Origin: Prostheceraeus crozeri
Lineage: Eukaryota; Platyhelminthes; Polycladida; Euryleptidae
DNA: 64,000 nucleotides
Reading direction: 5' to 3'
NCBI GenBank assembly: GCA_907163375.1
Contig: CAJQUW010004409.1
Span: forward strand, 159,484 to 223,483
The notes below the pieces were generated by a model. That model searched no databases and was not told where the DNA came from. It saw only the letters and a list, made by a program, of their open reading frames with translations. Shown here one piece after another: positions 11,662 through 62,992 of this stretch; within the stretch, counting starts at the first letter, position 1, and each line of letters opens with the position of its first letter. A program made the position numbers and the translations under genes.

Positions 11662-12235
11662 AATTTCTCATAGAATATCAATCAAATAAACGAAAATTAT
11701 ACTGTACAACAAAGTGATACAAGAAACTTTGGAAGGCATCAGAAAAACGTAAATAATAGCAACAAAGCTGCAATAAATAATACGCAAAAAAAGACACTTA
11801 TAGGCACAGTTCATGTCGCAAAAGCTTGAAGAAACCCAAATGAGAACCCCTTTGCCGTAACAATGGGTACAAGTCAGGTAGGCCACAGAGGAACCGGATA
11901 CAGCTACACGGGCTAAACCCCTCAGTAAAGCTACCCACGCATGTCCGTGGCAGTGGAACTGTACCGCCTTTTTTCGAGCAGTTGACCGGGCCTGCCTCCC
12001 AAAGCATTACCAGTGGGTTCGGGACCCTCGAACTACCTGACGCCCGTATGCCGTGAATACGTTGGATCTGTCACACCTTAACCTGCAACAAATGGGGAAG
12101 TGCAAAAGAGAGCAGTGGAAGGAAGTTCGATCACAAATGAGCCAAATAAGTGCCATGCCCAAAAACCTGATTCAACAACATGAAACATCTGATGACTGTT
12201 CATATCTTATATTTTGTTTGCAGAATCGGGAATAA
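11662..12235 (-). other. LINE A 5' region, possible ORF1 remnant
   Basis: On the minus strand this lies directly upstream of the LINE A ORF. A 69-codon frame (11798-12007), with cysteines and a basic start, could be the tail of an ORF1, but I recognise no domain. I take it as LINE A 5' sequence because it continues without a break into the ORF leader. Confidence 0.4.
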
Positions 12236-12326: not shown

Positions 12327-12490
12327 CCCTTTTTGCCATCGAGAACAGTCTTGTTTTGCTCTACGCGTTCTCTCATTTGCATGTCTGCACAGCACCCTAC
12401 ATACAGATACTTTTCGATCGTTCGCAGTCAGAGTGAACAGTCGGATGGTTAGCGCGCCTCCAGCCGTTGTTGCTTCTACCTACAATCGTC

Positions 12491-41505: not shown

Positions 41506-41790
41506 ATGATAGGATTTATCATGTTTTACATTATTCTATTCATCCTCTCCATGATCAGTAACTATGTGAAAAATGAGTTTTCACTCACATATTTAAATGG
41601 CTTTTATGGTCTATTCTTGGTGGCCTCTGGCATAGGAATACCAGTCGTTTTCATTATCGATGTTCTGCGCGTTTCCTGGTGCGCATGATTATTATGATAG
41701 ATTAAGTCATGTTTTACATTATTCTATTCTTTCTCTATCAGTAAACGTATGGGAAGATGATTTCACTCACTTATTCAAAGATTTTTAACA
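41506..41790 (+). repeat. ~190-bp satellite, two units
   Basis: The string tcatgttttacattattcta occurs at about 41519 and 41707, 188 bases apart. Each copy is followed by an atgagttttcactcac-like or atgatttcactcac motif. These match the units at 29.4-30.2 kb. Confidence 0.65.
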
Positions 41791-44700: not shown

Positions 44701-44880
44701 ATGCGCATTAAGTCGCACATGAACGATAGTCTGCGAGCCGGTCACTGACAGTTCGGGACTCGATAACAATAGCCGCATTGTCATAAGGACAATGCGACAA
44801 CACACCATTCATCCCCTCCTCAATTTGAGCAGATCGACTCATACATATTGGAGCTGTTATTCCTCAAGGTGGGACTCCTG
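41791..44880. other. Non-coding region
   Basis: No gene recognised. A short hairpin (CCCCACTTT with AAAGTGGGG, about 43087-43112) stands out, function unknown. Confidence 0.4.
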
Positions 44881-44899
44881 GTTGTCTCCCGATCCGTTC

Positions 44900-45815
44900 G
44901 TCTTCGGCATGTCGCGGGGAGATTCTGGTGATGATAGGTGGTAGGAGATTCTTCCTCGTACCGCCTGCATTCTCCTGGCATTCCACTGGTTGCCGGCCGA
45001 TGTTTCTTTATTCCTCGACCCCGATACTTGTGATGACTGTCAGCGGGTGACGCTCCAGGGATCCGTCCTTTCGGAGTGTAGGTCGCCTCACTTCCACGTA
45101 TCTCCGACGTGATATAGTGTCTTATCCATAGACCTTGTCGCAGACTCTCTGCCCGATTCTCCTCTTCTCGTGCGAAAACGAACTATCTGAAAGTTGGATT
45201 GTCATGTTTGTCGACCGAGGAAAGCTCAGCCGGACTCTTCTCATGCAGATTCTTGACTGGTACTCTGGCGGTTTTTGAGCCTATAATTGATTCAGAGTTC
45301 TTCCATGATTGATGACTAGCCGATACGGTGGAACGCCAGTGTGTTTGAGATACCTACTGAACGAGTCCTCGAATGCATTCTGTTGAGTGTATAGACAGGA
45401 GTGAATTCTTTGAAAAATGTCTCTATCCTGGAGGAAATTCTTTATAATTCTTGCGCGGGAATTGGGTCCGTTGTCTGTAATTATTTTCGAAGGATTCCCA
45501 TATCTTGCAAAAATGTTGACTGAGCCATGATTTGATCCCTTTCGTTATATTGTCGTTGGACTTAAGAGTTTCAGAAGCGTGAGTAGTTATCTATGATCTC
45601 CACCATATGTTTCATATGACTTGGAGCATTTGAAATGGTCCGTGATATCCCTTAGATCGCTCTTCCTTGCGTGCGCTGACACTGTCAGGACATCAGTTGG
45701 GGATGATGGAAGGGGGGCGGGGTTTCTTCGCTGAATCAGTGCAAAAGGGTTAGACATTGGTTTATCAGTTCGGGTTTCAGACTCCTTGTTCAAACCTTGC
45801 CACTGTAGTATATTA
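44900..45815 (-). pseudogene. pol: Second Gypsy element: integrase catalytic core and 3' part
   Basis: Read on the minus strand, shifting frames, this encodes the catalytic core of an LTR-retrotransposon integrase: IIDNYSRF (first aspartate) near 45585-45610 and ARYGNPSKIITDNGPNSRA (second aspartate) near 45465-45525. After it comes SKTARVPVKNLHEKSPAEL-like sequence, then a possible C-terminal part with LYHVGDTWK near 45110. Several frameshifts make it a dead fragment. Its missing upstream part, the RNase H and zinc-binding region, is on the same strand at 62425-62992, on the far side of the Polinton, so the two pieces are probably one element split by that insertion. Confidence 0.75.
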
Positions 45816-45821
45816 GGGGGT

Positions 45822-45869
45822 AATCCGGCGCGAACGCTTCGCTTTGCATCGCTTCGCGTGCGCCGGATT
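45822..45869. repeat. Near-terminal 48-bp palindrome of the Polinton
   Basis: AATCCGGCGC (45822-45831) and GCGCCGGATT (45860-45869) form a perfect 10-bp stem, with further pairing of gcttcgc-like strings inside. It is a sharp GC peak in AT-rich surroundings at the left edge of the element. The right end lacks it. Confidence 0.7.
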
Positions 45870-45879
45870 TCACACGTTT

Positions 45880-46260
45880 TGCAGGGTTTTTTTGTTCAAA
45901 AAATCAAATAGTCCTTAAAGGTTAGGTTCGTCTATTGTCACGGTGGCCAGAAGGCCCAAGGGGGGAAATTTTTGTAGTGGACAAATTTTCAAAAAACAAA
46001 TTTCAAAAATTTTAGCCGGTCCCTGAATATCACTAATCTCAAATTATGTACAATTTTCATGCTTAAATCATGAACGTCAAGGACACCAAAAATCATATAA
46101 GTTGAGAATATTCGAATTCATGAATTTTATTCCATCTGTCAGTGTGTTAAAATATATCAGGTGGACGAATAATATTTCTTTAAAAGTGGAAGAAACAAAA
46201 GTGGAAGAAGCCGCAAGAATATATCCCTCAATATCATATGAACGTAGTTTCACTACCCCC
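45880..46260 (+). repeat. Polinton left terminal inverted repeat
   Basis: The segment 46070-46255 matches the complement of about 61745-61915: aaggacaccaaaaatcat, ttgagaat, attcatgaattttat, aatatttctttaaaa, gaagaaac, aagaatatatcc and atgaacgtag all align in order. Weaker similarity extends outward to about 45885. Confidence 0.85.
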
Positions 46261-47479
46261 TCCCTTCTAACTTCTAGGGGTCCCGTCTGTACTTCGAGGG
46301 TCCCTTAAATAAGAAATTTTTTTTATTAAAAATGATCTAACATTTATGATGGTTAAAAAATTATATGGAACGCAAACTAAACAAAATTCGTCCTAAAGAA
46401 ATCGCAAAAGAATTAGGAATAAAGAATTTTCATGTTTCTAATGAGATGTCGTATGGACAATTCCTAAAATAGAATGCCACAGAAACATGCAGATCCCGGA
46501 ACTTAGTTGACTTCAAGTTTCTGCAAATTTCATACAAATCTTCATACGTCAGATTGAAAAAGGTTACATTGGTCAGCAGCGTTTTAAAATCATCAAGCTG
46601 AACTAATATTTTGACCGCCCGAGGCTGAGAACTATTGGTTCGACTCATACGTTTGCAACACAATTGGATGTACAAGAATTAATTGTACGGGAACTTTAAT
46701 ATTCGTGCAATTCAATTCACATTGCAATACTATTGTGGGCTATTTGGTGATACGTTTTGTACATATTACAAAAAGAGTACCATTTCTAGATATTATTTTA
46801 TGTGTTTAACTATCTATAACTCAAGCGAGAGCTAGCTACGCCACCTAAAGGTTAAAGCTCTGTTTTCTGTATTCATTTGGGGAGAAAAACGCCTCTGATA
46901 TTATTAGTATTTGTGTAGATTTATTTGATAGAGGTAAGGTTGGTGCTGATATCATATGGAATTGAGGGTTAGTTTATGGGTGGGTTTAGTTTATAGTCTA
47001 GTATATTTTTTGTAATATTTATATTTATTTTGTAAATTTTCTTTTGATATATTGGTATTTTATTGTAATATTCAAAGCACGTTTAAATCTCTACAATGGA
47101 ATAAAATTACTTTGTACGAACACAATTAATCCACAAATCAATAAGCATAATACACACATCACTCCCACTAAAGATATCAACATCCAATTTCCAAAATGAC
47201 CATATTTGGATCTACCTAACAACAATTATAATATGATAAAAAAAGTAATAAAACAACCAGTTTCAATCCATATGTATCCCACATTATCTTAAATCTTATT
47301 CATAATTAAATCGATAAGTTTAATTACGTATGCAAACAACAAAAATTCTTTAATACCAAAACCCACAAACCTTTTCAAATTAATTCTTATATTTAAATAT
47401 TCTAGAACTCTATCTCGCAATCTTAATTTCGGCTTACTTTTCTGCGAAATTCGATTACTCTCATGCACATTATAGTTCT
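46261..47479. other. Polinton interior, unassigned
   Basis: AT-rich. An 81-codon minus-strand frame (46430-46675), with VQLDDFKTLLTNVTFFNLTY, could be a real small gene but is not recognised. A GC-rich patch with tagctacgccacctaaaggt lies at 46830-46850. Confidence 0.35.
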
Positions 47480-47985
47480 CGAATATTCTTTCGTACTAAA
47501 TCTCAGGTCCTCAAAGCTTCTTTGGAGTTCTTCAATACCAGAATGGGAACTTTATTAGTGTACCTTCTACCACTCCTGTGATATTTTTTAACCATTTATG
47601 ATTGTCTTTCTCATTTACAATTTCTTGAATAATTATTTGTTAACGACCGATTGAATTCTTTCTATCTCTTCGTCCTTCCACTGCATTGTTCAGATGAATA
47701 AACGAGCCGTGGCGAGACTTTCGGCTGTTTCAAATTGTGGCTGGAACGTTTCGTTATAAAATTCCGATCCTGTTATCTACAAACAATTTCCTTGGCTTTC
47801 TATTACTTTCTTTAAAAGATTTCTTCAAACGGACATATTTAACTGATAACCCACTTTATTTTTTAAAAGGCTTTACCAAGCGTATCCGTGTATATAAATC
47901 TATAACGGTCAATGCGTATTTGTAGTCCTTTCTTTCGCATTTAATTAATATCAGCATCCAAGTAAGCATATTTTATTACATACAT
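47480..47985 (-). pseudogene. Polinton integrase (retroviral type), broken
   Basis: On the minus strand, frame shifting, this encodes the integrase core: KDYKYALTVIDLYTR (first aspartate, about 47886-47930), SFKESNRKPRKLFVDN then GSEFYNET in another frame (second aspartate, about 47730-47820), a degraded region where the glutamate should be, and DNHKWLKNI then a VLKNSKEAL-like stretch, matching the C-terminal YNN...TPKEA part of Polinton integrases. It would join the element to host DNA. The N-terminal zinc-binding part is not seen. At least three frameshifts are needed to read it through. Confidence 0.85.
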
Positions 47986-48045
47986 TTAACTTTCAATAAA
48001 TATTTATACGCCTTCTGTATCTTATGATTTGCAGACGCGGTAAGG

Positions 48046-48160
48046 TTCGAGCGTTGCTCTCAGAGTTTTGATTCGAGCGTTGGCGCTCAGAGTTTTTAGT
48101 TCGAGCGTTGCGACTCAGAGTTATTATTCGAAGCTGTTCCCAGACAGCTTAGCTGTCATC
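48046..48160. repeat. Cluster of four short hairpins
   Basis: Three tandem units of 26-28 bases begin TTCGAGCGTTG (48046, 48072, 48100) and continue to CTCAGAGTT. Each can fold, the second perfectly as GAGCG-ttgg-CGCTC. A fourth hairpin follows, AAGCTGT-tcccag-ACAGCTT. They sit upstream of the integrase frame. Confidence 0.75.
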
Positions 48161-48269
48161 AGTAAACCCTGGCCGAATAATATTTTAGCGTGGTAAAGGG
48201 CTTTCTAACAAACTTTCTTCAATTTTTCTCTAAAATGTATGATTTTGAATATTATCTAAATTCATGAAT

Positions 48270-48440
48270 CATCTCTTATCATCTTCATGACGAGATTTTA
48301 GGTCAATGTATTCGGTTAAGCAATGCTTGCCGTATGCTGCGGCTTCGTACTCTAATTTTTCGTTATTCACCTGTTTTCGGGATTATTATCTCATCTAGTC
48401 TTATATTCGTAATCGAGTTTCCTGGACCAGTATAAGATTG
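48270..48440 (-). pseudogene. Possible PLA2-like capsid segment
   Basis: Minus-strand reading gives SYTGPGNSI (about 48413-48437) and, after a frameshift, EYEAAAYGKHCLTEYIDLKS and RHEDDKR (about 48270-48350). The order, a YxGPG calcium-loop-like motif followed by an AY motif and a DLKxRHxxDK-like stretch, recalls the phospholipase A2 domain of parvovirus-type capsid proteins and similar proteins in Polinton or adintovirus elements. The catalytic HD is not clearly present. This is a tentative call. Confidence 0.35.
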
Positions 48441-51036
48441 ACAAGAAGATGTTTTTCTTTCGAATATTTACTCCAAATAAATCCGTAAAGTTTGCTATGT
48501 TTTTGTATGTCACCACCGAGGTAGTTAGCCAAACTTTTGTTTGTCGTCGTTACCTATTCATGAAATTTTACAAGTTTGAAGTTTTTATTTTTTTTTATAG
48601 TATAATTCATATATCTAGATTAGAATATTTTAATTTAGGTTAAATTTTCCGAGAATTTTGTAGAATTCATTTTAAAAGATAAAAAAAGATTTAAAGTATA
48701 AAATAAAAAATTGTTTTACGAAAAGACCAAAGTTCTGAGTTATTACCTATCATACTAGGAACTTAGATATTTCCAGAACCATCTTTAGTTTCTTTAATTG
48801 CAATTATCATCAACATGTGGAGAAGTATTTTTTAAGGAACTCGTTTTCCTCATTCAGACTAATTTGAATTTACGAATAATATTATTCTACTATTCCTTCT
48901 CGCCCTAGCAACTTTCTCGTAACCTCTGTTAGGACGTTTTTTGTTCTTCGAATGCTGGCCGTCTCTGATTTATATTTTTATATACTGCTTGGAACAATAC
49001 ACTGTCCCACCTGCAACACTTCCTGCACTGCTATGCCACATATTATTAGTGGATTACGGGAGTATAACCGGCCAGGCTGTGCGCCTGTATGTAATATTCT
49101 CTTTCATTGTTTTCTTTTTTTTAATTTTTTGGTAATCGTTATAGTTTGAGGGGGTATTTTTTGGTCATCAATATTACTAATTTTTAATTCAAAAGTTGTG
49201 ATTATTATATACTTTTCTGCTTGCGACTGTTTTAATATAAATAAGTTTATGTTACGAAAATTTTAAAGTGAAGAATTTTTAATCTATTCTATTATGGAAA
49301 ATTATTTTAATGGTACGAATAAAAATTTTAATCTATCTTGTTATCAAAATTTTAAGGTTACCCAAAAATTTTAATCTATCTAGTTATCAAAATTTTAATT
49401 TCAAAAAAATTATATTTAATTAAACGATACGGAATCATGGGCTTTAGGCATATCGGACCAAAGTTCCTAAGGTTTACTAACCGGATCCGAGACAACTTCC
49501 CCATTAAGAAATTCAAGTAGATTTTGTTTCATCTCTAGCAATTAACCATTAAGCCACAATGAAGTTGTGTAATTTCGTTCTTCAAATATTATGTGTTACG
49601 ATCTCAGACCGAGTCTTGATAATATCGTCAGATGGTCCGTTAATCGGATACATAAAACAGGAGTTAAAGTCTCCAATCTCAATGGAGTTAATTGGTGGTT
49701 CTACTCCAAGATTCTATAGCAAAGATTTCGATAAGAATCATTTCGCCTTGCCGTAAAGTGAATTATTGCTATCGTAAAATCATAATGGATCAATTGGATA
49801 AACGGGGCTTGATTTTAATGAGACTGTAATCTTCGAATTGTAGTAAGATAAAAAGATTGTTGTGTCTTTTCAAAACTTGAGAATATTTATTGAAATGTAG
49901 TTAATAATTATCTTGGTGGATTCGCAGTTCTAGTAAAAATGCCAGTTAATATCTTTGGTTCGAAAAAGTTACTGAACTAGCAGTACGCGTTAGAAAAGAA
50001 ACTGGAATTGGTTGTTAGTATTTAATCTTTTTGCAATAGCTGTTTAACCTCTAAACGAGGAGGAATATGCTTTATCCACCATTCAAGTCGTATCAATTTT
50101 AATTTTCGTTTGGCCAGCTTACCAAAAAAGTTTTTGCATTATTTGCTGTGTTCATGAATTATTAATTTAAATTTTAGATTGTTATTATATTTTTCTGATT
50201 CTAATTAGACGAATTTATGGGATGATCAATGTCATATTTAGCTGTCTGGTGTGACTTTGTTTGTTTATTGCAATCGTCTTCTTTATAGACGTCATTATTT
50301 GGTTTTATTAAATGTTTATGCAATATTATGTCTACATCTTTCGCAATTACATAGGGCTTCGGTGCCTGGCGTGAGTTTAATATCATCTAACAATGTATAA
50401 TACATCTGGTGTTTCAGTGGATAACAAACCTTCGAGTGCATTCTTTTTTTTATTTCTACCTTTGTTACAAACTAAGGCAGGTTTCTTTTAAACCTGAGAA
50501 TCACTTAGTTGTTTCTATATTTGAGTTGGCAACATCTAAAACGCATTGTGTAAAGTAAAGCTTGAAAAAATTTTATTCTCTAGTGCAATATTTATTCGGG
50601 ATGCTGGGGTATGGTGGTGTATATTTGGGCTCTACTCGATCTAATATTTTCAACAGTGGGTATAAAGGTTCAGGGTAGATATAAATTACTCTGCTGATTT
50701 CACTATCAATATTTCTAATCTCCCCTGGTTGTTCGCTTAGGGAAGATTCCGGGATTCAAGCAATTCGTATAGAGTCATTCTTTTTTTGATGTAACTGACT
50801 TACGGAGGTTCGTCTATTCTATTTTGTTATGTTCGATAAGAGCGAAAACATTTTTTATATAAAATATAATTTTGACTTTTTGGTTTTTTTCTCACAGACA
50901 AAAATAAATTTTACCAAAATATAATTTTAGCATTTCAACCAAAAAAAATTTTTACCAAAATACTATTGCTAAAAAATTTTTCTAAAAAATTTTGCTAAAA
51001 AAAAATTTTACTAAAAGACAGAACTTTAGAATTTTG
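48441..51036. other. Polinton interior, unassigned coding-like DNA
   Basis: No gene could be assigned. A 65-codon plus frame (49559-49756, with SDGPLIGYIKQELKSP) and a 61-codon minus frame (50201-50386) look hydrophilic and protein-like. At 48.9-49.1 kb the minus strand has a basic segment, KKRPNRGYEKVARARR, that could be a DNA-binding core protein. These may be broken capsid or accessory genes. Confidence 0.3.
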
Positions 51037-51070
51037 CTAAACCAGCTCCGCTTACAGCTTGCTGGTTTAG
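51037..51070. terminator. GC-rich hairpin in Polinton interior
   Basis: CTAAACCAGC (51037-51046) and GCTGGTTTAG (51061-51070) pair perfectly around a 14-base loop. It lies in AT-rich DNA and resembles the other hairpins in this element. A terminator role is a guess. Confidence 0.4.
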
Positions 51071-53337
51071 ACCGATAGGTTGCTACGCCACGCCATTTCG
51101 CTTATTCTTCTAGGGTGTTTTTATATTTTTTTATTTTCATTATGTTTTACTATTGATACGACTCTAACCTCAAGTTGCCCCTACAGCTATGTTAGCATTT
51201 TTGTTTTGTTGTTCCGCTGAAAGTTTTTTAAATGTTTAGGTTCTTCGATATCATTCCTATGTTTACGAATAGCTTCTAGTGTGTTTTATATTCGGTTTGG
51301 GAGACTTGTCAGCTGTGGATATTGCACTGCGGTACTACCTAATAGCACTGCTGCTTTTGGCTCAGAATTGGGTTAATCAAATCTTTTTATTTTTATTGAA
51401 GGTAACGATTCTCCAATACCAGAAAAGGATGCAACCCCTTCGTTTTTGGAACGGGCTCCTGCGGTCCTAGGAACTTTTGTGTTCCAAAGTTTCTACTCTT
51501 GCTAATGGTACACAGTTTGCTTGAGGGATGGTTCATGAAGAAATTTTATGTATTTGATGCAAAATGTTTGAAGATTGTTGTGACAAATTAGATCATGTTT
51601 TAGGATTACAAAGTTGACTTTTGGGTTAAATATCTACGTGTGTTACAGATGTTTCTTGTGTATGGACCAAACAACTTCGGAGTAAATTTATTATTTGACT
51701 TTTGGCACTATCTATTGCGTCAAGCAGCGTGTGGATGTACTTAGTAATGTCTGTTCGTTTATTATTGCATTTTCATCCTGAATCAATCTTTCACCGCCGT
51801 TTAAGTGTAAATTTAACTAATTTTAAATCATCTAATTGCTTTTGAACAGAATCTAACTGTGCTTTATTGGACGTAGTAGTTGCTGTAATTGTGCTTTAAG
51901 TCTTTTGCTTATTGAGATGTTCATGATGGTCCATGTGATCTTCTTTTTCGATTAAGTGAGTGTTACTCCATTTATATTATCTATTCATCTTTTTCTGTGG
52001 TTGTGTAAGGTTAGTATCTTAATTCTTCAACACTTTTTTGGGAATGTAGGTTGTAACGGCAGTTATATTTTTTTTTATATTCTTTCAGGAAGTTGTTTTC
52101 TATTTTCTTCTCTATTGGGCTTGGTACTTTTTCTGATGTGTATTGTAATGACTGCAGATTTGAACTTGATAGAAAGTTATATTAAAATTTTTGATTTTGT
52201 TCAGAAATTCTTTTTAAAAAGTGTTGCTTATATCCTTCTTCTACTCCTATCCCTTTTTTATCTAAGTTTAATATGTGTCGTTGGATTGATTTGGTCATTA
52301 AGGTTGCAAACTTGTATAGTCATGCATATGTGAACAAAACATCGTTTATATATTTTTCTTTTAAGTCAATTGATACTGTGTATCAACAGATTTTTATTTG
52401 TTATACTCTGTATTTTGTTGCGAACAAGAAAGATCTGGGACCATTGAAAACTTCGCCAGTTTTCAAAAATTATGTTCCTCTATCTCTATTTCTAATTCAC
52501 TGATTATTCGGATAAATGCACCTCCACCATATTGGTATCAGCATTTTTTATTTAAAAGAAATAAAAGTTTTTCTAATAAAATATAAAAAAAATAAAATTT
52601 TTTTTTTAATAAAATAAAAAATTGAAAATCCAAATTTAAAAAAGTTGTATTCGCCCGACATCATCACTTATATTCTTATTCGACGTATCAACGGGATTTG
52701 AAAATACATGTTTTGATAATAATAATAATCCATGTAAATAGAAGTTGAATATTTGTGTTGAATTACATCCGAAATATTTAGAGGAACAGAACAAAAGGGT
52801 TTTTACCTTCTATAGAAACTAATTATTGTTATTTCCGAACCCATTAGTTAAATTATGGATTATTGGTTAGTAAAATATAATGGATGTATCTTATGTGGAA
52901 TAAAATAGAAGAGAATTATGGTTTATAATAGGTCTTAATTATGTTTTAATTAGATGTAATAGAGCAGTGTTACCAATAGTTAATACTGATTGGATAGAAA
53001 CTAAAATTATTTATATATCAATATTAAGAATAGTTAAAAAATTAAATCTTTTTCGGAAAAAAAAATAGATTATTTGTTGACGATCAAAATCAATTTAACA
53101 TCACGATAGTATAAAACATAATCAAAATTATTTGATCAAGTTATTATAAGACACAATTTATAAACAAAAACATAAGTAATACCGCAAAGTAATTATGATG
53201 ACGATACGTAATTGGAATTATATTCAAACTTAAATAATAATTTGTTAAAATCTTCCATAATGGCTTAGCGCATAAAGTAAAAAAGTATATGTTCAACACT
53301 ATACTATGTAACAATGACCCTTACATCAAAAAATTCT
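51071..53337. other. Polinton interior, unassigned
   Basis: The plus strand has a 125-codon hydrophobic frame (51956-52333), but the same DNA on the minus strand reads as a lysine- and asparagine-rich protein-like segment (ILNLDKKGIGVEEGYKQHFL), with few interruptions. The minus-strand reading seems more likely to be the coding one. Function unknown. Confidence 0.3.
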
Positions 53338-53367
53338 GAACCGAAGGTTCTAAAGGGCTTTTGGCCC
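53338..53367. terminator. Double hairpin in Polinton interior
   Basis: GAACC-gaa-GGTTC (53338-53350) is followed directly by GGGC-ttttg-GCCC (53355-53367). The GAACCGAAGGTTCTA string recurs at 54712-54726. Role unknown. Confidence 0.4.
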
Positions 53368-54299
53368 ATCGAATGGATTCTTATGATAATGAAGTGTAGT
53401 CTGTAACATCTGAAAAAGGTGTAAATGGTAAAAAATGATTATTAAAAATATGTAGTAATTATAAGAATTTGATCTAAATTTCCAATTTCTTAAAATGAAA
53501 ATAATAATGATTGTTTTATAAATTAAAAAAAAAGTAAAAAAGTTAAGATACTGTTTATCTTATATTGTCTGGTCTACATATGTTAAATGAGGAGTTACAT
53601 CGATAATCTAATTTATTATCATTTACTCATCTTTAATAAACTAAAAACGTGATTCATATTATGGTGTGTTTATTTAAATTTCCAAAGAGATCAAAGACCA
53701 GATATTTTTTCTCTATATTATATTATATATTATCAGATAAAAAATGTACTTTAGATTATATATTCTAATAAGAGAATGGTATCCTATCTGGAGAGGGAAT
53801 CTCTATACCAAAAAGTCATAATTTATGATGATGAAGAAACAATTTATGATGTTGAATGATGATGAATCAATAGTTAGTGAAAGTAAATTTAAATTATATT
53901 TTTGAATAAAACATTATATGATGAAATACTTAATATGATGAAAACTTAATGGTGATAAAGAAAAAAATAACTAGAAGAACGTGAAATATATAATAATATA
54001 AAATAACACTCAAGTCCTAGATATTAGAATGTTTTATCATCTATAATTAAAACGACAAATTTTTTCCTCCTAAAATAATAAAAAAATAGGAAAATACCAA
54101 TTTTATTGTGTCTTATGTAAAAAAAGTTTCAAATCAAAAAGAAGTTATCAAATCTCATTTAAATAGTAAAATATGCTATTTACAAAATGTAGAGAACGAG
54201 GTTTAAAAAAAAAAAAAACAATGAAGGAAATATATAAAATTACAATAGTTATATTAAAACTATCTAGAATAAACACATTGCCTACTGATAATAAAAGTT
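53368..54299. other. Polinton interior, unassigned AT-rich DNA
   Basis: Very AT-rich, with short fragments that read as hydrophilic protein on the plus strand but no recognised gene. Confidence 0.3.
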
Positions 54300-54470
54300 A
54301 CAACCCCCCCCCACACACCCCCCCTCCACCACCCCCCCCCCCCCCCCCACCCCCCCCCCCGCGCCCCCCCCGCCCCAACCCCCGCTAAGCAGCCGTCCCA
54401 CCTCAACCCCAACCCACGAACACCCCCCACACACTCCCCCAATCCACCAGCACACCCCGAACCCCCCCAG
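54300..54470. repeat. C-rich low-complexity tract
   Basis: Long runs of C broken by A, G or T, about 170 bases, in otherwise AT-rich DNA. The complement would be G-rich and could form quadruplexes. Runs of this kind also arise from consensus errors in long-read assemblies. Confidence 0.7.
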
Positions 54471-54949
54471 AAAATGTTTGAATGATTATTCACATCGAAT
54501 ATAAAAAATTGTTTTTAATAGTGAAGATAGAGCCCCACTCACCAAACCGACAGGATTCTAAGGGCTTACCCGCCCGTACCCCAGATGTAGCATATTTATG
54601 ATAGCCGGGATTACTGATGAATTTAAACGAAATAGATGAATTAAACGGAATTAAAAAAACAGATGAAGCGGTCACAGATATAAAAAATATTTATTTAATC
54701 AGTTCCAGTGCGAACCGAAGGTTCTAGGCTTCGCCCGTTTGAACAAAATGAAACCGATGAAACTTTTTATAATGTTTTTTGAAATTTTTGAAAAAACTTT
54801 TTATAATATATTTATAGAAATCATTTCAGAGGCGCAACCAGCAGAGAAATACAAACGGGGGGGAAGTCAACTGATGGGGGTGACATTAATTAGAGAAAAA
54901 AGACGCATATTATCGACCTATTATGAAAAGAAATGCTAACTTAAACCAT

Positions 54950-55822
54950 AAACTAAGGATTGGCCATGGATTTGCCAGGACAATTGCAAAGATGTCCAGC
55001 TTACCAGTGAACTCGGACTCAGGAACGCAGACCCCAGCTATCGATGACCCATCTACTCAACTGAAGATGACTCCGATGACTGGGAGTAGGAACTGAGAGC
55101 CAGTCACACACAACAGCCAGACGCCCGAAGAGAGTGACCGAGGAAGACGTTACAAACCCAGAGGCGACAAACTCAAGTGAACACCTTTCACTTGAGGAAA
55201 CACTAGCAGCAGTTAAGAAAGATTCATCAGACTACAACCGTCAGTTCCATTCTACAGAAGACGCAATACCATCATATCACCGAACCTTGAGCAGCTAGTC
55301 GTAACAAAAACGTGTCCAGAGAAGAAGTAGACCAGTCCATAGATAGCTTCTTACTGAAGTGATCTAAGGAACTCATATCCTTAAGTGCTTCTTTACAACA
55401 ATTTTCCGTAACGATTTGGGGGGGGGGGGGTTTATTATCGATTTGTTTTTTATGTGACTCGTCTTATTATCGCATTTGCTTTCCTGTCGACTCGTAATTG
55501 GCAACAAAAAAATACATTTCTCAACCCATTGTTTTATTTACCAATGCAAGGTAATTTTATCGGTAAAGTGTATACATGGTACAGAAAATATACAACTTTG
55601 CATGAAGTAAAGACTACAATGTACAAATATATAGATACTCGCAACAAATATCACATAAACAAACAAACATCCACCATGTACGAGTGCGTATTTGGTTAAT
55701 ACATGTCTGCAACGCATCTTAAGATGAGTACTCAAGACACCTAAAGACTAAACCGGCCACCCCTCTAAACTGGCCATTATTTCCGGTACGGCCGGTGGCC
55801 GGTTTACAGAAGTTTCACTGTA
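54950..55822 (+). mobile_element. Tigger/pogo-like transposon remnant
   Basis: The right terminus, read as complement, begins cagtgaaacttctgtaaacc, the CAGTG-type end of Tigger/pogo elements, next to a TA at 55820. Inside that end is a 13-bp inverted pair, TAAACCGGCCACC and GGTGGCCGGTTTA (about 55748-55805). At about 54957-55400 a frameshifted transposase C-terminus includes SLEETLAAVKKDSSDY, like the acidic tail of Tigger/CENP-B-type proteins. The catalytic part and the left end are missing or not recognised. Confidence 0.65.
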
Positions 55823-55825
55823 TAT

Positions 55826-58065
55826 AGAGGTGCAGCACATAATTCTTGTAATCTTAATGCTAATAAATTTAAATATAACTTTGTTCCTTTATATTTCTAT
55901 AATGGTTCTAAATATGATTTCCATCTAGTAATGAAATGATTTATTTTCCATCTGAAAAATTACAACAACAACAAATAAATGGACGATGTAAAACAGAAGA
56001 AGAATATTTTTCAATGCAATTAAAGGGTGTTTGCAGTTCTGAATTTTGGATGCAGTTTAGATTGTGTTTTACCTCCTTATTCATTGGTAGAATGTTATGG
56101 GAAAAACTTTGAAATCTGAACAATGTAAAATATTAAATAAATATAAATTTAATAACCTTTAAAAGGAATCATTTTCCGTATGAGTATATTTAACTTGGTA
56201 GATTTTAAATATCTGGAATAAAATGTATGGAAGAAGGAACAACTCTTTCCTCCAATAAATAAATTTAAATCAACATTAAAACAATCATAAATTATCTGAC
56301 GAAGACTATGCAGAAGCTGAAAAAAATTGGAGAGAGTTAAATTGCGTAAAGACAATGTATGATTATAACAATGAAATATCTACAGATAGATGTATTAATA
56401 CTAGCTGATCTTTTTGTAAAACTTTCGTGATATGTGTTTAGAATATTACGGAATAGATCCCATGTTTATTGTGATTCTACACCAGGTTTAACATGGTTAG
56501 CAGGATTAAAACATACAAATGTTAAACTTAAACATTATAAAGGAAAAAAATACATATGATAAATTATGATTTTTTGAATCTGGAATTAGAGGTGAGTTTC
56601 ATCAGTTTTAAGGTAATAGATATAGTTTTAAATGTTATACATAAGAAATGTAAATAACACAAGAATATGGTATAATGAAACCTTTTATCTACCAGAAGAA
56701 ATATAGAAAAAATATTTGAATTCGTTCGAACGAAACGAGTAAGGAGTATGAAACGAATATAAAGCAATTGATGATTCATGAGAGAAAACTATTTGTTATA
56801 TTATGATTTTTAAGTAGCTTATATTCTTCCTTGCTTGATACAAGAATTACCAACAGGTGAAATGTCATCGGTGTAATATTTCTAGATTATCAAAAAACAT
56901 ATGATGGAAATTATATTCATAGGTTTATAATATATGAAGTTGATTTAGTAGAATACCCTGATGAAATTAAAGATACTAACAATAATATTTTCCATTTCTG
57001 TCCCGAAAACAAAATTCCTAATATAGAAGATTTTTCAGATTATCTAAAAATCTTTAATTCCTAAAAAATACAGACAACAAAAAAACATTATGTTAAACAC
57101 AAAGCAATAAAGGAAAGTATGTTGTTGAAGGAAGAATGCTAGTTTGGTATTTAGAAGATCTGGAATGGATTCTCACCAAAATACAAAGAAAACTATTTTA
57201 TAATAAATCTAGTTTGGTTAAAAATTATAATAGAGTTCATATATTGAAAAACGCAAAATAGCTAAAAGAAATAAAGATGATTTTGGAAACGTGTTCTTCA
57301 AATTAATGAATAATGCATTTTATGGTAAGACTTTAGAAAATGTGCGTAATAGACAAAATATTGAAATAGTTTATGATAAAGATAGGTTTCAAATTTTAAC
57401 AAGGAAACCTACATATAAAAGAACTACTAGATTTAGTGATGAACTATGGGCTGTACATTTACGTCGAATCAGCGTAAAACATGATAAGTTTAATTTCAAT
57501 TGGTTTTCATCAATATTAGAAATAGATAAACTATTTTAGATGGTGGTATAGATTTATATGTTGTTTATGTAGCACCTGCTTAGGGGCAAAAACTAATTAA
57601 ATTACACTGTTAACAAGATACCGATTCTTTGTTCTTAGAATTAACAATACCGTATAATTCTACACTTGATGAAGAAATTTAATTAAATAAAAGATAGTTA
57701 TTGCATCCTTCTGATGGTTATGTAAAGTAAATAAGATGAATTAGAAGGAAAATGTTAATTTTCATAACATGAAGCTTATATTTTTAAAATGCTAATGTTA
57801 CTTGTTTATGATACAACTAATATTATTAAATACCACAATAAAAACATTAAAAGGAATTCATCAAAGGCATCATTGGCTAGATATACAAATAACATTTCAA
57901 GATTATAAAAATGCATTATTTAATAATGAAATAAAAACAGACATGTAATTATAGACTTATTTCAAAAAAAAACATAACATGTATTATAAAAGAAGAACAT
58001 AATTAGCTATTAGATCCATTTGATGATAAAAGAAAAATTTTCACCCTGTGATGGACATAACTACT
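55826..58065 (+). pseudogene. Protein-primed-type family B DNA polymerase, broken
   Basis: The replicative polymerase of the element, seen in several frames. In order: the exonuclease II motif in FYNGSKYDFHLVMK (about 55890-55936); FRDMCLEYYGIDP and STPGLTW (56424-56500); motif A in FLDYQKTYDG (about 56880); VDLVEYPDE and HFCPENKIPN (56940-57020); motif B in FFKLMNNAFYGKTLENVRNR (57291-57360, inside an 82-codon open frame); motif C as DTDS (57617-57628) in a shifted frame; and a C-terminal DYKNALFNNE then DPFDDKR (about 57890-58035). It is the family (PF03175-like) found in Polintons, adintoviruses and linear plasmids. The catalytic aspartates are kept, while many small indels break the frame. 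The N-terminal part is lost or lies beyond the Tigger insertion. Confidence 0.9.
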
Positions 58066-58208
58066 GAACCTTTTTTAATTTTCTAATTTCTAAGATAGAC
58101 AAAGTTTGATATATATATATATATAAAGATAAAATAATATTGTAAACACTAATATTTGTTATATTTTTTGTTCGACTCAGTAAACAAATCTTACTATCAG
58201 AGTTTCAG

Positions 58209-58244
58209 TCGGGGGGGCGGAAGCCCCTCGAGGTCGAAGCCTAG
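58209..58244. terminator. GC-rich hairpin between convergent genes
   Basis: GGGG-cggaag-CCCC, followed by CTCGAGG and CGAAGCCTAG, lies between the 3' ends of the plus-strand polymerase and the minus-strand ATPase. The position suggests a transcription end signal for both, by inference. Confidence 0.45.
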
Positions 58245-58589
58245 TCAGTGAACAATTGTTTTCTCTATAACTCTATCAACTCTATCATGAATTTTTTTTA
58301 TCAATATTTAATTGTGGATAACTATCCATTATGCTTTTGACCAAGCAATTGTTACAATCGATTGTTTAAATTCATCTTTATTTCTTAAACCATAAATCTT
58401 TTTGATATTAAATTCACGTATAAAAGGGGGATGCATTTATTGTACAAATAGTATAAATTATATTTGGTACATTCTTTCTATAACACTATCCGTCTAATGA
58501 ATACATACTGTTGTGTTAAATAAAATACACCTACAGTTTTTATGTCTACCTCTTGTGAAATAATTTCCTCTGAACTGACTGATTTCTAT

Positions 58590-59060
58590 CATTAACCACA
58601 ATCATAAGAAATTAGTAAATGTTTTGGGGGTATTGGTTTTATCTAGTTACTTAGGATCTTGACATATTACCACCTATCATCTATTAATTGGGTATCTTTA
58701 TTATGGTTTTGTTTATTAGAATTACTACGTAACTGATTTATTTTTTTTGCTGCTGTCTTCACACCACGAACTTATTTCTTCTTCATCTTCAGTATTTTGT
58801 CATATTCTTTGAAATAATGGAAGCAATTGCTGCTTTTTTAAGATTAGTTTTCAAATGCCATATTTTAAAAATTGATTAGACGAGGTTGTTCTGCCAGTTG
58901 TAGTGTAATAAATTATAAATTGTTATAATCAAAAAAATTTGGATGTCCGTTAAAATTTTAAATAATAGATATGTTTTTTTCCACCACTTCCTGGATGCAT
59001 TCCACATCTTAATAACTGACAAAACTTTATTTAGAAAATTTGATGATGATTGAAATTTAA
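58590..59060 (-). pseudogene. FtsK/HerA-like packaging ATPase, broken
   Basis: Read on the minus strand with frameshifts: a Walker A-like string GMHPGSGGKKH (about 58980-59015; one codon longer than the usual GxxGSGKT), then NGHPNFFDYNNL, then EDEEEISSWCEDSSKKNKS (about 58755-58790), and a Walker B-like KHLLISYDCG (58596-58628). The spacing and the SSWCEDS-type segment suit the genome-packaging ATPase of Polintons and adintoviruses, which would drive DNA into a capsid. Its partner capsid gene appears to lie directly upstream on the same strand. The identification rests on my recall of these families and needs a profile search. Confidence 0.6.
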
Positions 59061-59179
59061 GTTTTTTTTTATTTATATGGAGGTAGTTCAAACTCAATTT
59101 TTTAATAAATAAAAATATTATTTTTTTTTATATTTTTTATTTTTATTTTAAAGAAGAAGAAAATTAAACTCTCTAGCTA

Positions 59180-60060
59180 GTCGCGTGGGAGTTTATACCT
59201 AACCGAACCAAATTAGAGATCTATCATAATCATCTTCAACCTCCAAATATTTATTTCTTGTAATTTTTCATCAGTGATATCTAAAGCCAATGTTGTTAAT
59301 AGTTTTTCATTGGGTAAGTGGGAAATATATTAATGTTGTGTGATGGAATTACATTTTAATCTATAACTCAATGGGCTACAGTAATTGCTGGGAAAACTGA
59401 ATTTTAAATTTGATAAGTTTAACCATTTATAATATCACTATATAGTCCTTCAATTAATGTCACAATGTACACAACAATTGAATTTATTATCAGTTATTTT
59501 GGAATCTTCGTACTACCTAAATTGATATCGCCTTTGACTATAAGTTTGTTTATTAAATCCTAATAGCTTTTGACAATGATCTATCAGTGATTAATAAACA
59601 ACTTTGATGATTTTCGTCTAAAGTAAGAGAAAATTTATTCTTGCACGGTTCTAACTGTCAAAATGTAATTGATTTCTTATCTTTAAATGATATACCTAAA
59701 GGCAGAGGTTAATTCATGTTGGGGATATTGATTATCAACTTTCGTAAGAACCAGGAAGAAAAGTTAGTTATTTTTCCATGTTTGAGTTTATCAGGTAGAA
59801 TATCTAAATTGGTCATATCACATCTTATTTGATAACGTTTTGAATAGTGTTTAAATGTAAGAGAAACTAACTTAGTCAATGCAATTTGAGATAATGGTTA
59901 TTTTGTTCCAAATGTAGAATGGGTTCTATATTGTTACAAGTGTGTGATGAAGTAGTTTGCTATAATGTTTTAACGTCCGTACTAAAGTTTTGATGAAACC
60001 CAAAATCTCTGTCCAAAATTTTCTAAATGATTATTAATTTGTCTAAAATCTGCTGAACAA
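59180..60060 (-). pseudogene. Minor capsid (penton-like) protein, broken
   Basis: On the minus strand, with several frameshifts, the order is: PGSYE-like motif (about 59740), NHQ and FINH-type stretch, LLGFNKQTYSQ (about 59555), then VHCDIN (about 59460), SDIING (about 59435), VFPAI (about 59395), and a C-terminal DITDEKLQEINI (about 59270). This LGF..., INT/CDI..., SYING-type layout is characteristic of the single-jelly-roll minor capsid proteins of Polintons and adintoviruses, as far as I can judge. It would form capsid vertices. It sits just upstream of the ATPase on the same strand. Confidence 0.55.
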
Positions 60061-60138
60061 ATTTTTAAACTAAAAAAAATTAAATAAATATTTTTTAAAT
60101 GGAAATTTTTTTTATAAAAAAATAAAACAACAACATAT

Positions 60139-60160
60139 TTCAGCTACGGGGCGAAGCCTA
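60139..60160. other. GC-rich island with shared CGAAGCCTA motif
   Basis: GGGGCGAAGCCTA here shares CGAAGCCTA with the island at 58235-58243 and with the complement at 54725-54733. It marks the upstream edge of the minor-capsid-like gene. Confidence 0.5.
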
Positions 60161-60179
60161 AAGACATCAGAAGATGACC

Positions 60180-61735
60180 GGTTATACTTTTATAATCCAT
60201 TTCATTTAAATCTTCTTTTCAACAGTCTTTTCAATCTACATGAATTTCATTGAAACTAGAATTATGTCCGTTCGCTTTTATTGCAGATATTAAAATATTA
60301 ATCTATTTAGTAATTCTTGTGATCATCTGGTATAAATACAGTGTTTCAGTTTTGCCTTTCCTGTTTTTCAGATAAACTTTTCCCTACTTTAGAACTCCCT
60401 TGATATTAAATTTTCTAATTGTTTATAACGTCTAAGAGATTACTGCACCAACTCTGTCTAACATAGATTATATTTTATGAGATCTTCTACAGCATAATTA
60501 TTATAAAATCTGCACCTCTTAAAAGATTAACAAATTTCTATCTAAATTAAAAGGAGAATTATCTGGTGAAAAAAATTATCACCTCAAAAGGTTGTGGAAA
60601 TATGTCTTTTTGTCCGAGATAAAATCTAGGTATTTTTTCCATCTATAAATGAAATAAATGTGAAATTGCATGATTTGGTAATTTATATTAATGTTTGATT
60701 CTAAGTAATCCATAGTCCATCTAATATAGTTGTGCTCTGGATCGTTATATCAATTTGTTTATCATTATTTGTACTTTCTTTTTCAAGAGTTTTAATGTTT
60801 CCTAGTTTTTTCAAAATCCACTTTTACTTTGCCGGTTGCTGCAATTTTTTCAAACATATCAGATTGAATACCAGCTTTTTATCATATCTATGTTGAAGAT
60901 GATTTTCTTCATAATAATTTCTTGTTTTATTAACTCTTCTAATTGTTTTATTCTTTTTAAAATTATCAGCTCTAATTTTTATCCATTTTTAAATATAATA
61001 TTGATATTTTGTTGGTAACATTGGAATACAGCAGAAAACATTTTACTGACAAATTTTTTTATAGCTTTGTTGTTTGACATCTTTTCGGTTTAAAGTTTTC
61101 TCTTTTTAATTTTGTTTAATAAAGATTTGCTTAAATTTTCGCATAAAGTTTTAGCTCTTCTAAAAAAAATTTTATCATTTTTCTTCCATTAGAAATTTTT
61201 AGACATCACTCAGAAATTTTGCCATCATTTTTATTTTTATCATAAACTTTTCTGTCTGTGATTGAAATGATATTTAGATTTACTTCATTAGCTATTGATC
61301 AAATTTTTCAATCTCATCTAACGTAATAACATTATCATCACATACTCTTTGAAGTAGTAATGTAGTTTTATCATAGCCTTTCTTTTATATGTAAATGCTT
61401 AGTTTTAATGATATTTCGTTTCTTATTAATAAAGATTTATCTAACATTGTAACGACAAGTGAAGTGCAAAAACACACCTACCTGTTAAAGCTGTAGCAAC
61501 TACTGGAATTACTAAAAAACACCTGAAGATATAACAATTGTCAAAGCACCTAAACTTATGTTATGAATATGCCAATTCCTTGTGTTACATTCTTAAACTT
61601 TAGTCCATCTCTTACTTCTAATTGTTAGTAATGCTCTAATCTTAATAATAATTTGAATTCCTTATCTTTCATATACCTAACTCTATCTTTGGTTTTTAAT
61701 TTCATTTTTTCAATGTTAATCTTTTCAATGTCCAT
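60180..61735 (-). other. Polinton interior: unassigned minus-strand coding-like DNA
   Basis: Three stretches read like broken proteins on the minus strand. At 60.2-61.0 kb there is a segment with YNDPEHNYIRWTMDYLESNI. At 61.1-61.39 kb there is YDKTTLLLQRVCDDNVITLD then IEKF. At 61.4-61.73 kb, beginning MDIEKINIEKMKLKTKDRVR, a hydrophobic stretch (SLGALTIVISS) may be a membrane segment. None could be assigned. The major capsid protein could be among these, but no motif decides it. Confidence 0.35.
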
Positions 61736-61739
61736 TAAA

Positions 61740-62424
61740 GAAGAACTACGTTCATAAGATAACGAAGGATATATTCTTGAGGTTCCTTCCACTTTTTGTT
61801 TCTTCCATTTTTAAAGAAATATTATTAGTCACATGATATATTTTAAAAACCTGAAAGATGGATAAAATTCATGAATTTGAAATTCTCAACTTTTATGATT
61901 TTCGGTGTCCTGGAACGGTCATGATTTTGGCGGTGGTGAAAATTGTAATTCTCAAATTTTGAGATTCTTAACTTTTATGATTTTTTTCGGTGTCCTGGAA
62001 CGGTCATGATTTTGGGGGTGAAAATTGTAATTCTCAAATTTGAGATTTTGAAAAATTTGAAAATTGGGTATTTGTAAAAACGCCCAAAATTTGGTGAATT
62101 AGGTCTTCCATAACTGAAAAGGTTCAAATTCATGAATTTATGTCGTTTTTAAAAAGTACCCATTTTTGAAAAAATGGTACTTTTTGAATGGGACAAAATT
62201 CATGTATTTGGTCTTAAAACCTGAAAAATGGTTCAAATTCATGAATTTATGTCGTTTTTAAGATAACTATTTTTTTGAATGTTAGGTGCCTGGAACGGTC
62301 CTACAATTCTGTATTTAGGTCTTAAAAAACCTGAAAAAGGTCTAAATTCAGAATTTCTGTCGTTTTAAAAGATACTATTTTTTTGAATTTGGTGGTGTCC
62401 GTGGAACGGTCTTTTTGCCCATTA
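61740..62424 (-). repeat. Polinton right terminal inverted repeat with tandem units
   Basis: The inner part (about 61745-61915) pairs with the left repeat at 46070-46255. Outward of it are tandem units: an 81-base unit (starting about 61881 and 61962) holding cctggaacggtcatgatttt, and about 110-base units (from about 62100, 62210 and 62320) holding attcatgaatttatgtcgtt. The cctggaacggtc string recurs at about 61910, 61995, 62290 and 62403. The repeat array is longer than the left end. Confidence 0.8.
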
Positions 62425-62992
62425 CAGGATTACTGGCCACCTATAGAGCTCCCTCAATTTCCGCTTAAACCATCACTATTCATGGATGTCCATTGAGAGC
62501 CTTTTTCAGAGAACTCTGCGCACTGATTGAGGAACAAGAATTCCGTTTTCTCGCCACGAATAATATTACCATTTTCTATTGCCAATTCATGCCACACCGT
62601 AATTTACTTAATTGCTGTAGATCTTGGCTGCTGTCTTTAGAGACTTTTGGACCGATCCGTGTAGTTATGAATTTACAAACTTGCTGCAGAAGCGGATCAG
62701 ACGATGTCGCATCTTTGAATATTTTGGCAGAAAAACCCTCTTCATTTATTTTCCGGAGTCTTTGCAATTGTTCTTCCTTATCTGTTTCAGTTGAACCATC
62801 CAAAAGTCGAGAAATTGCGTCAGGAACTATATTATTGACACCGCTTTGGTATTGAATTGTGAAGTCGAACTCTGATAACCGGTCCATCCATCTTCCAAAC
62901 TTCGCTGATTTTCTTCTGTTATGAGCATTTTGCAATATTCCTGACAGAGGCGGGCGTATGTAGTGCCTACACCGAAATGCAAAAAGCCACAA
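62425..62992 (-). pseudogene. pol: Second Gypsy element: RNase H and integrase zinc-binding part
   Basis: An open minus-strand frame (62576-62992) reads RPPLSGILQNAHNRRKSAKF then RLSEFDFTIQYQSGVNNIVP and DAISRLLDG, the RNase H C-terminus and its linker in Ty3/Gypsy pol. Below it, with shifts, KALNGHPWIV and RKLRELYRWPV (about 62440-62500) match the HHCC zinc-binding start of integrase, then homology stops at the Polinton edge. The catalytic core of this integrase is at 44900-45815 on the other side of the Polinton. Its upper edge is cut by LINE C. Confidence 0.85.

What the first reader, a model, noticed from the sequence alone, without database searches (positions are those of the whole stretch)
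45816..62424. A ~16.6-kb Polinton/Maverick-like element with long TIRs and a recognisable gene set
Inverted repeats at 46070-46255 and 61745-61915 flank an integrase, a type B polymerase (exonuclease motif, motifs A, B and C), a packaging-type ATPase and a minor-capsid-like gene. Open-frame tracks show almost nothing here because every gene is frameshifted, so it is easy to miss. Family facts: Polintons are self-replicating, possibly virus-like DNA transposons of 15-20 kb with long TIRs. The gene calls from short motifs are inference.
Basis: partly seen in the sequence, partly recalled or inferred. Interest (0 to 1): 0.92.

Follow-up and report, generated by a model that had tools for sequence, protein, structure and literature searches.

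The report
Abundant animal Polinton, badly sequenced copy
This is one copy of a virus-like jumping element that exists in thousands of closely similar copies in an unnamed animal's genome; the copy looks broken mainly because this stretch of the assembly is poor, and the family's real interest is that its two types of DNA-copying enzyme mostly travel with their own type of DNA end.

Summary
The element is real: one insertion, 45,804-62,434, with a 6-bp target-site duplication, inside a repeat whose uninterrupted copies show the empty site. It is a Maverick-Polinton (PolB, integrase, A32-like ATPase, double-jelly-roll capsid, inverted repeats) of a family with 6,595 exact termini, about 3,300 copies if both ends count.

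Its "decay" is almost certainly unpolished sequence. Indels reach 5-7 per 100 bp; errors continue into the host repeat on both sides and stop at 62.7 kb, after which 1,245 bases match one other repeat copy exactly.

Unexpected: the family has two nearly unrelated PolB genes. Terminus type follows PolB type in 35 of 36 complete elements with a PolB call, while sampled capsid-side and ATPase-side genes are not partitioned by type. This suggests exchangeable replication modules on a shared chassis; gene conversion limited to shared stretches is a live rival. Integrase and a phospholipase A2 domain share one frame, as in 99 of 120 listed public proteins.

The window copy has one terminus of each type: a rare recombinant or an assembly patchwork, unresolved.

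The parts
45798..45803 (.). left target-site duplication, read TGCCAC (empty site GGCCAC)
45804..46249 (+). left terminal inverted repeat; outer part type I-like (family type I starts AGTAGTATATAG, here TGTAGTATATTAG)
46309..46800 (+). protease-like gene pieces (adenain-like His/Asp/Cys motifs recognised by eye from recall; no profile match)
   Evidence: E 1.5e-15 to L011 frame; negative
47299..48703 (-). phospholipase A2 domain + rve integrase, one reading frame in other copies; pieces in three frames here
   Evidence: Pfam PF08398 and PF00665 in L013
48748..49244 (-). small hydrophobic protein; weak adenovirus protein X resemblance (E 0.028, below cut-off)
49494..50888 (-). double-jelly-roll major capsid gene pieces
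   Evidence: E 1.6e-29; PF21738 E 1e-18 in L013
51029..51600 (-). gene E, unknown (glycine/alanine-rich)
51650..52604 (-). gene F, long coiled-coil-like protein, unknown
52557..53902 (+). gene G, unknown; none of 7914 candidates of the protein database scored E <= 0.001
54491..54814 (+). PolB (type 2) N-terminal piece
   Evidence: E 2e-5
54827..55823 (.). fragment (about 909 bp) of another repeat, lying where about 1.9 kb of PolB is missing compared with C3665
55820..57984 (+). PolB (type 2) C-terminal pieces, including the NAFYGKT motif
   Evidence: E 1e-61, 2e-57, 5e-9; PF03175 E 4e-12 in L014
58278..59076 (-). A32-like packaging ATPase pieces
   Evidence: PF04665 E 1.7e-5 in L014, above cut-off
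59216..60112 (-). minor capsid (penton)-like gene pieces; identity inferred from recalled motif and position
   Evidence: relatives P0121-P0135
60171..61055 (-). gene K, unknown
61111..61868 (-). gene L, with a long hydrophobic stretch, unknown; starts inside the right TIR
61744..62434 (-). right terminal inverted repeat with tandem 82- and 109-bp units; outer part type II-like (family type II starts AGTAATGGGCAAAAG)
62435..62440 (.). right target-site duplication GGCCAC
41769..62699 (.). error-rich (probably unpolished) stretch: covers the element and parts of the host repeat; left edge not found, right edge sharp at about 62.7 kb

Best explanation
Window 45804-62434 is one insertion of a very abundant, rather young Maverick-Polinton family in an animal genome, represented here by sequence of raw-read quality. 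Shown: a 6-bp-duplicating insertion into another repeat; TIRs; a gene set of PLA2-integrase fusion, DJR capsid, PolB, A32-like ATPase, protease-like and penton-like genes and unknowns; thousands of exact termini in the genome; two PolB lineages that follow two terminus types although the genes sampled between them do not. Inferred: it works as an integrating linear dsDNA virus-like element. PolB with its terminal-protein part primes copying at the TIR ends, so each PolB needs its own terminus; the ATPase packages the linear copy into a DJR capsid; the PLA2 domain helps entry; the integrase inserts the linear DNA with a 6-bp staggered cut.
For: TIR alignment far beyond shuffles. Empty site and TSD. 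Perfect 6-bp TSDs at the three other copies whose both ends I read: AGCATG, AACATA, GAACCT. Domains: PF00665 8.7e-10 and PF08398 3.7e-9 in one 495-aa frame, PF21738 1e-18, PF03175 4e-12 and 8e-32, PF04665 1.7e-5. Twelve genes found as pieces in the window. Error artefact: 5.07-7.12 indel events per 100 bp in the window copy (6 comparisons) against 0.33-1.35 between other copies (7 comparisons). Host repeat: left flank 43342-45803 at 83.5% identity to L031, right flank 62433-63944 at 98.4%, while two other copies agree with L031 at 98.3-98.5%. 19 events in 62433-62699, none in the 1245 aligned bases of 62700-63944 against L031. The same A>T and T>G excess in left flank (57 and 45 of 180) and left part of the element (239 and 190 of 940). 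Nested repeat: 54 insertion events to 1 deletion. Copy number: 2210 type I and 4385 type II exact termini, 1666 PolB1 and 3400 PolB2 exact 24-mers, reversed controls 0. Linkage: 35 of 36. No partition of the sampled genes between.
Against: Raw reads were not seen, so 'unpolished' is inferred from the error pattern. The strand asymmetry is strong only in the left part; in the right part A>T and T>A are even (61 and 59), though T>G still exceeds A>C (33 and 12). The left part has more substitutions (12-13%) than the right (5-6%), which alone would look like a chimera of two ages. PolB carries a 0.9-kb foreign fragment in place of about 1.9 kb, which may be real damage. The window copy has type I-like left and type II-like right termini, whereas 0 of 41 complete elements were mixed: it is either exceptional or a patchwork. 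Protease and penton calls rest on recalled motifs. The linkage rests on the first places listed per pattern, not on all copies. No virion, expression or replication was shown.
Confidence: 0.88

Rival explanations
1. The window copy is a truly old, decayed Polinton fossil, as its frameshifts suggest.
For: Every gene is broken and the copy lies 12-13% (left) and 5-6% (right) in substitutions from other copies.
Against: The same kind of errors fill the left part of a host-repeat copy whose right part, from 62.7 kb on, is identical to L031 over 1245 aligned bases. The substitutions are poor in transitions and, on the left, strand-asymmetric; indels are several times to about twenty times denser than between other copies.
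Confidence: 0.05
2. The window 'element' is two different elements, or reads from two loci, joined at about 54.3-55.8 kb, which would explain the two terminus types and the two levels of substitution.
For: Type I-like left and type II-like right terminus; 0 mixed of 41 complete elements; change of error profile near 54.8 kb; none of the 40 scored of 845 candidate places, other than the window itself, spans the junction at 54827.
Against: Both ends abut the same host site with a matching 6-bp duplication (5 of 6 bases), and a pattern for the left junction at that site found no other insertion with up to 1 mismatch (the right junction was not searched). Error levels also vary within the host-repeat flank alone.
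Confidence: 0.35
3. The PolB-terminus linkage is not functional: gene conversion or recombination between integrated copies mixes only the segments that the two types share, while PolB and the termini, having no similar partner, stay as they were in two founding clones.
For: The PolB1 and PolB2 pieces compared are nearly unrelated (20 of 48 identical in the best stretch); the outer termini differ; copies descend from few founders, so they are not independent.
Against: Discordant elements exist: C3665 and C62:386628 with type I ends and PolB2, C4529 with type II ends and PolB1, so whole-module exchange happens yet was rare in the sample.
Confidence: 0.45

Closest known systems
Maverick-Polintons (class Polintoviricetes)
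   Same: Size, TIRs, 6-bp TSD, AGT-type ends, PolB, rve integrase, A32-like ATPase, DJR capsid. Vertebrate Mavericks have 5'-(AGT)2, (AG)3 or (AC)3A ends, 6-bp TSDs, 16.9 kb on average and TIRs of 46-1,447 bp (PMC8097293, passages and section 8).
   Different: Copy number: vertebrate Mavericks reach 287 per genome (axolotl, all defective) and at most 38 intact (PMC8097293 section 8); here 6,595 exact termini. I found no figures for invertebrates. Thousands are known from protists: 2,224 and 4,841 capsid genes in two Trichomonas assemblies, 3,251 in Paulinella (PMC10120064, passages).
Adintoviruses (Alpha and Beta)
   Same: Same gene logic. Mixed hexon/PolB pairings (AB, BA) were reported, i.e. 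PolB lineages can be exchanged between capsid lineages (PMC11071296, passages).
   Different: [quoted passage not shown] no chromodomain was found in the integrase frames here. The passages seen do not discuss terminus type against PolB type.
Insect Mavericks Sf Maverick 1 and 2
   Same: They carry a PLA2 domain, an integrase, a PolB and a weak A32-like ATPase match (PMC5803895, passages).
   Different: There PLA2 lies in a separate capsid-like protein (CAP) and the integrase has a chromodomain; here PLA2 and integrase share one frame, as in 99 of the 120 listed public proteins.

Membership tests
Maverick-Polinton | one integrated unit of about 15-20 kb | tested here: met
   16,631 bp in the window; 41 complete elements span 10.7-23.1 kb, medians 17.1 (I) and 17.9 kb (II)
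Maverick-Polinton | terminal inverted repeats | tested here: met
   in the window only the inner part of the two arms matches
Maverick-Polinton | 6-bp target-site duplication | tested here: met
   window 5 of 6 bases, with empty site; 6 of 6 at three other copies
Maverick-Polinton | protein-primed family B polymerase | tested here: met
   PF03175 in other copies, pieces in the window; protein priming itself not testable here
Maverick-Polinton | rve integrase | tested here: met
   PF00665 8.7e-10; pieces in the window
Maverick-Polinton | FtsK/A32-type packaging ATPase | tested here: met
   PF04665 24.8 bits, cut-off 22.8; PHROG 2666 2.8e-8; pieces in the window
[quoted passage not shown]
   PF21738 E 1e-18; pieces in the window
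[quoted passage not shown]
   conserved gene with 15 public relatives; no Pfam family above cut-off and no NCBIfam family; PDB profile search gave only weak sialidase- and dispase-inducer-like hits; structure prediction switched off
Maverick-Polinton | Ulp1/adenain-type cysteine protease | tested here: inconclusive
   no protease match in Pfam or PDB; motif by eye only
Adintovirus | integrase with C-terminal chromodomain | tested here: not met
   no PF00385 match up to E 0.5 in the three integrase frames scanned; one of 120 listed public relatives (P0103) carries it
Adintovirus | PolB with N-terminal OTU-like domain | tested here: inconclusive
   no OTU family in the Pfam scans of the six PolB frames; remote folds not testable
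Adintovirus | hexon recognisable by BLASTP against reference adintoviruses | not tested
   no reference sequences to hand; the defining paper is not held

The most novel reading that the evidence does not exclude
In this animal, Polintons behave as a modular virus population: two replication modules, each a PolB (with its terminal-protein part) plus a cognate pair of DNA termini, ride on one freely recombining capsid, packaging and integration chassis, so that terminus recognition by the polymerase is the chief barrier to recombination. It has spread to about 3,300 copies, nearly 3% of the assembly.
Probability: 0.45. Interest if true: 0.82.

Novelty: new variant of a known kind. Interest (0 to 1): 0.6.

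Why it matters
The window copy by itself is an ordinary Polinton in poor sequence, and a warning that a 'fossil' called from frameshifts can be an assembly artefact. The family is more valuable. Thousands of similar copies with natural recombinants in one animal genome make it possible to ask which genes of a protein-primed DNA virus must travel together. The first answer is that polymerase and terminus do, while sampled capsid-side and ATPase-side genes do not. That would make a long-assumed rule of protein-primed replication, polymerase-origin matching, testable in Polintons, for which virions had not been observed as of PMC8097293 (abstract).

Tried and rejected
Two-age chimera from the left/right divergence step: dropped as proof of age, because steps in error density and, on the left, the same substitution bias occur in the host-repeat flank; a patchwork remains possible. 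TSD by eye from GGTGGCCAG near 45943: wrong, replaced by the empty-site comparison. IMG/VR scan with the PolB piece: 10 pattern matches, none confirmed. Gene G as a sliding clamp (idea from reading it): no homologue at E <= 0.001, one weak PDB match to a thioesterase; dropped. eL39-like stretch in the capsid protein: taken as chance. Host name: not found; Wnt genes show an animal; the cuticle-domain search found nothing, but its control was silent too. Papers: adintovirus with phospholipase A2 and integrase, 0 papers; at least two of polinton, phospholipase A2, integrase fusion: 7 papers listed, of which passages of 2 were read. The listings (titles and starts of abstracts) show no account of PolB-terminus linkage. 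PMC8097293 does tie end motifs to protein-primed replication ('jumping-back') but the passages seen do not set end motif against PolB lineage. This is not proof that none is in print.
Full report
OBSERVATION. The inverted repeats are real: the best local alignment of the two ends (46035-46249 and 61744-61966) scores 255, the best of 100 shuffles 35. In 45.8-62.4 kb no stop-to-stop frame exceeds 125 codons; the longest PolB piece, 57234-57536, matches DNA_pol_B_2 at only E 0.013.

THE FAMILY. The window's own genome is held: 2.05 Gb in 14,165 contigs, the window being the end of contig C3662. The TIR has many relatives there (40 scored of 1297 candidates). Copies on contigs C4870, C4529 and C3665 were read in separate stretches. 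Their open frames give the gene set: a PLA2 domain (PF08398, 3.7e-9) and an rve integrase (PF00665, 8.7e-10) in one 495-aa frame; a double-jelly-roll capsid protein (PF21738, 1e-18); PolB (PF03175); an A32-like ATPase (PF04665 1.7e-5, PHROG 2666 2.8e-8); a protein weakly like adenovirus protein X; a protease-like and a penton-like gene recognised by recalled motif only; and several unknowns. Each of the twelve genes is found in the window as stop-ridden pieces in one to three frames. The PLA2-integrase fusion is no oddity: 927 public proteins match at E <= 1e-3 (7994 candidates scored), and 99 of the 120 listed carry both domains. In the 24 that I aligned (of those 120), the putative PLA2 His is kept in 24, the Asp beside it in 23, and the putative integrase D, D, E in 24 (which residues are catalytic is recalled). 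The penton-like protein has 15 public relatives among 584 candidates, one of 98% identity on a 1.1-kb metagenome contig.

INSERTION. The element sits in a repeat with 40 scored places of 44 candidates, the window among them. In the uninterrupted copy L031, the left flank (window 43342-45803) matches 1-2364 and the right flank (62433-63944) matches 2357-3861. The site reads CCTGGCCACC once; in the window TGCCAC precedes and GGCCAC follows the element. So this is most simply one insertion, 45804-62434, with a 6-bp duplication. The three other copies whose ends I read have perfect 6-bp duplications: AGCATG, AACATA, GAACCT. A pattern for the left junction found no other insertion at this host-repeat site with up to one mismatch.

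WHY IT LOOKS BROKEN. The window copy differs from other copies by 5.07-7.12 indel events per 100 bp, mostly single bases (6 comparisons), while 7 comparisons among other copies give 0.33-1.35. Its substitutions are poor in transitions (218 of 940 left, 111 of 346 right, against C3665; about half among other copies) and, in the left part, strand-asymmetric (A>T 239, T>A 95; T>G 190, A>C 35); in the right part the asymmetry is weak (61, 59; 33, 12). Most tellingly, the host repeat shares the fault: its left part in the window is only 83.5% identical to L031 (180 substitutions, 94 insertion and 50 deletion events), its right part 98.4%, while L033 and L037 agree with L031 at 98.5 and 98.3%. Errors end sharply: 19 events in 62433-62699 and none in the 1245 aligned bases of 62700-63944 against L031. 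The left flank shows the same A>T and T>G excess as the left part of the element (57 and 45 of 180). The repeat fragment inside PolB, 54827-55823, has 54 insertion events, 1 deletion and 31 substitutions against L025, with which L026 and L027 agree at 98.9 and 99.7%. Mutation of the element alone cannot do this; unpolished long-read sequence, such as a filled gap, can. I infer this without having seen reads. The left edge of the poor stretch lies at or before 41.77 kb. The true state of this copy is therefore unknown; I have not tried to restore it.

COPY NUMBER. Exact counts on both strands: type I terminus 1091 + 1119, type II terminus 2152 + 2233, PolB1 marker 847 + 819, PolB2 marker 1772 + 1628; reversed-pattern controls 0 in all four. 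If each element has two exact ends this is about 3,300 elements, near 58 Mb or 2.8% of the assembly at an assumed 17.5 kb each. That the family is rather young is inferred from exact termini, long open frames and 1.7-8.4% substitutions between the copies compared. Wnt genes show that the host is an animal (30 matches; none in 14 control genomes). In vertebrates Mavericks reach 287 per genome, all defective in that host, and at most 38 intact (PMC8097293, section 8); some protists hold thousands of related capsid genes (PMC10120064, passages). I have no figure for invertebrates.

TWO MODULES. PolB1 (C4870, C4529) and PolB2 (C3665, C2757, C3175, window) share almost no similarity beyond motif B in the pieces compared (20 of 48 residues), although the flanking genes of C4529 and C3665 are 92-94% identical. 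The tool lists the first 100 places per pattern. I used those on contigs up to C315: 47 of 100 type I, 100 of 100 type II, 39 of 100 PolB1 and 86 of 100 PolB2. Among the 147 termini, 41 adjacent inward pairs 8-26 kb apart were found: 13 I-I, 28 II-II, no mixed pair (43% mixed expected under random pairing). Of the 13 I-I, 11 hold the PolB1 marker, 1 PolB2, 1 neither; of the 28 II-II, 24 hold PolB2, none PolB1, 4 neither. Over single termini, 31 of 47 type I point to PolB1, 3 to PolB2, 13 to none; 65 of 100 type II to PolB2, 1 to PolB1, 34 to none. The genes between were sampled in 7 of the 11 I/PolB1 and 7 of the 24 II/PolB2 elements plus C4870. They do not follow this division: capsid-side distances within and between groups are 0.0410 and 0.0433 (15 sequences, 89 of 105 pairs with enough overlap; 465 of 2000 label shuffles reach the difference; nearest neighbour of the same type in 10 of 15), ATPase-side 0.0220 and 0.0218 (13 of 15 sequences, two without overlap dropped; 892 of 2000; 6 of 13). 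With so few sequences a weak partition could be missed. Exceptions to the linkage exist: C3665 and C62:386628 (type I with PolB2) and C4529 (type II with PolB1). The plain reading is that polymerase and termini form a replication module. The rival is that gene conversion mixes only shared stretches; copies are also not independent, so the tests overstate significance.

THE WINDOW COPY carries PolB2, a type I-like left end and a type II-like right end. With 0 of 41 mixed elsewhere, it is either a rare recombinant or a patchwork of reads; the matching TSD speaks for one locus, the change of error profile near 54.8 kb for patchwork.

HOW IT PROBABLY WORKS. From the family's gene set and established knowledge of Polintons (PMC11071308, passages; PMC8097293, passages): protein-primed copying from the ends, packaging by the ATPase into a DJR capsid, integration with 6-bp stagger. 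The PLA2 role in entry is inferred from parvoviruses (PMC5803895, passages). None of these steps was tested here.

MEMBERSHIP. It is filed as a Maverick-Polinton. I do not file it as an adintovirus: the chromodomain named in PMC11071296 was not found, and reference sequences were not to hand.

Noticed in passing
41769-62699: Error-rich, probably unpolished stretch; long open frames occur elsewhere in the window, so the gene-free look of this part is partly an artefact.
   Followed up: yes
L013:5390-6754 (capsid frame, residues 268-316): A stretch resembles ribosomal protein eL39 (best E 6.4e-4); probably chance.
   Followed up: no
penton-like protein, P0121 about residues 75-93: Conserved S-x-D-x-G-x-T-W (Asp-box-like) motif; weak matches to sialidases and dispase autolysis-inducing protein.
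   Followed up: no
P0121: A 98%-identical penton-like protein on a 1.1-kb metagenome contig: host DNA or particles in the environment.
   Followed up: no
54304-54376: C-rich low-complexity run between PolB pieces, unlike the rest of the element; may be read junk.
   Followed up: partly
61874-62387: Tandem units of 82 and 109 bp inside the right TIR; TIR length differs among copies, partly through such units.
   Followed up: partly
8770-11667 (-), 12437-15604 (+), 63001-63951 (+): Long open frames, retroelement-like by eye; the last is a reverse transcriptase (PF00078 2.2e-27).
   Followed up: partly
52557-53902: Gene G of the element: none of 7914 scored candidates reaches E 0.001.
   Followed up: partly
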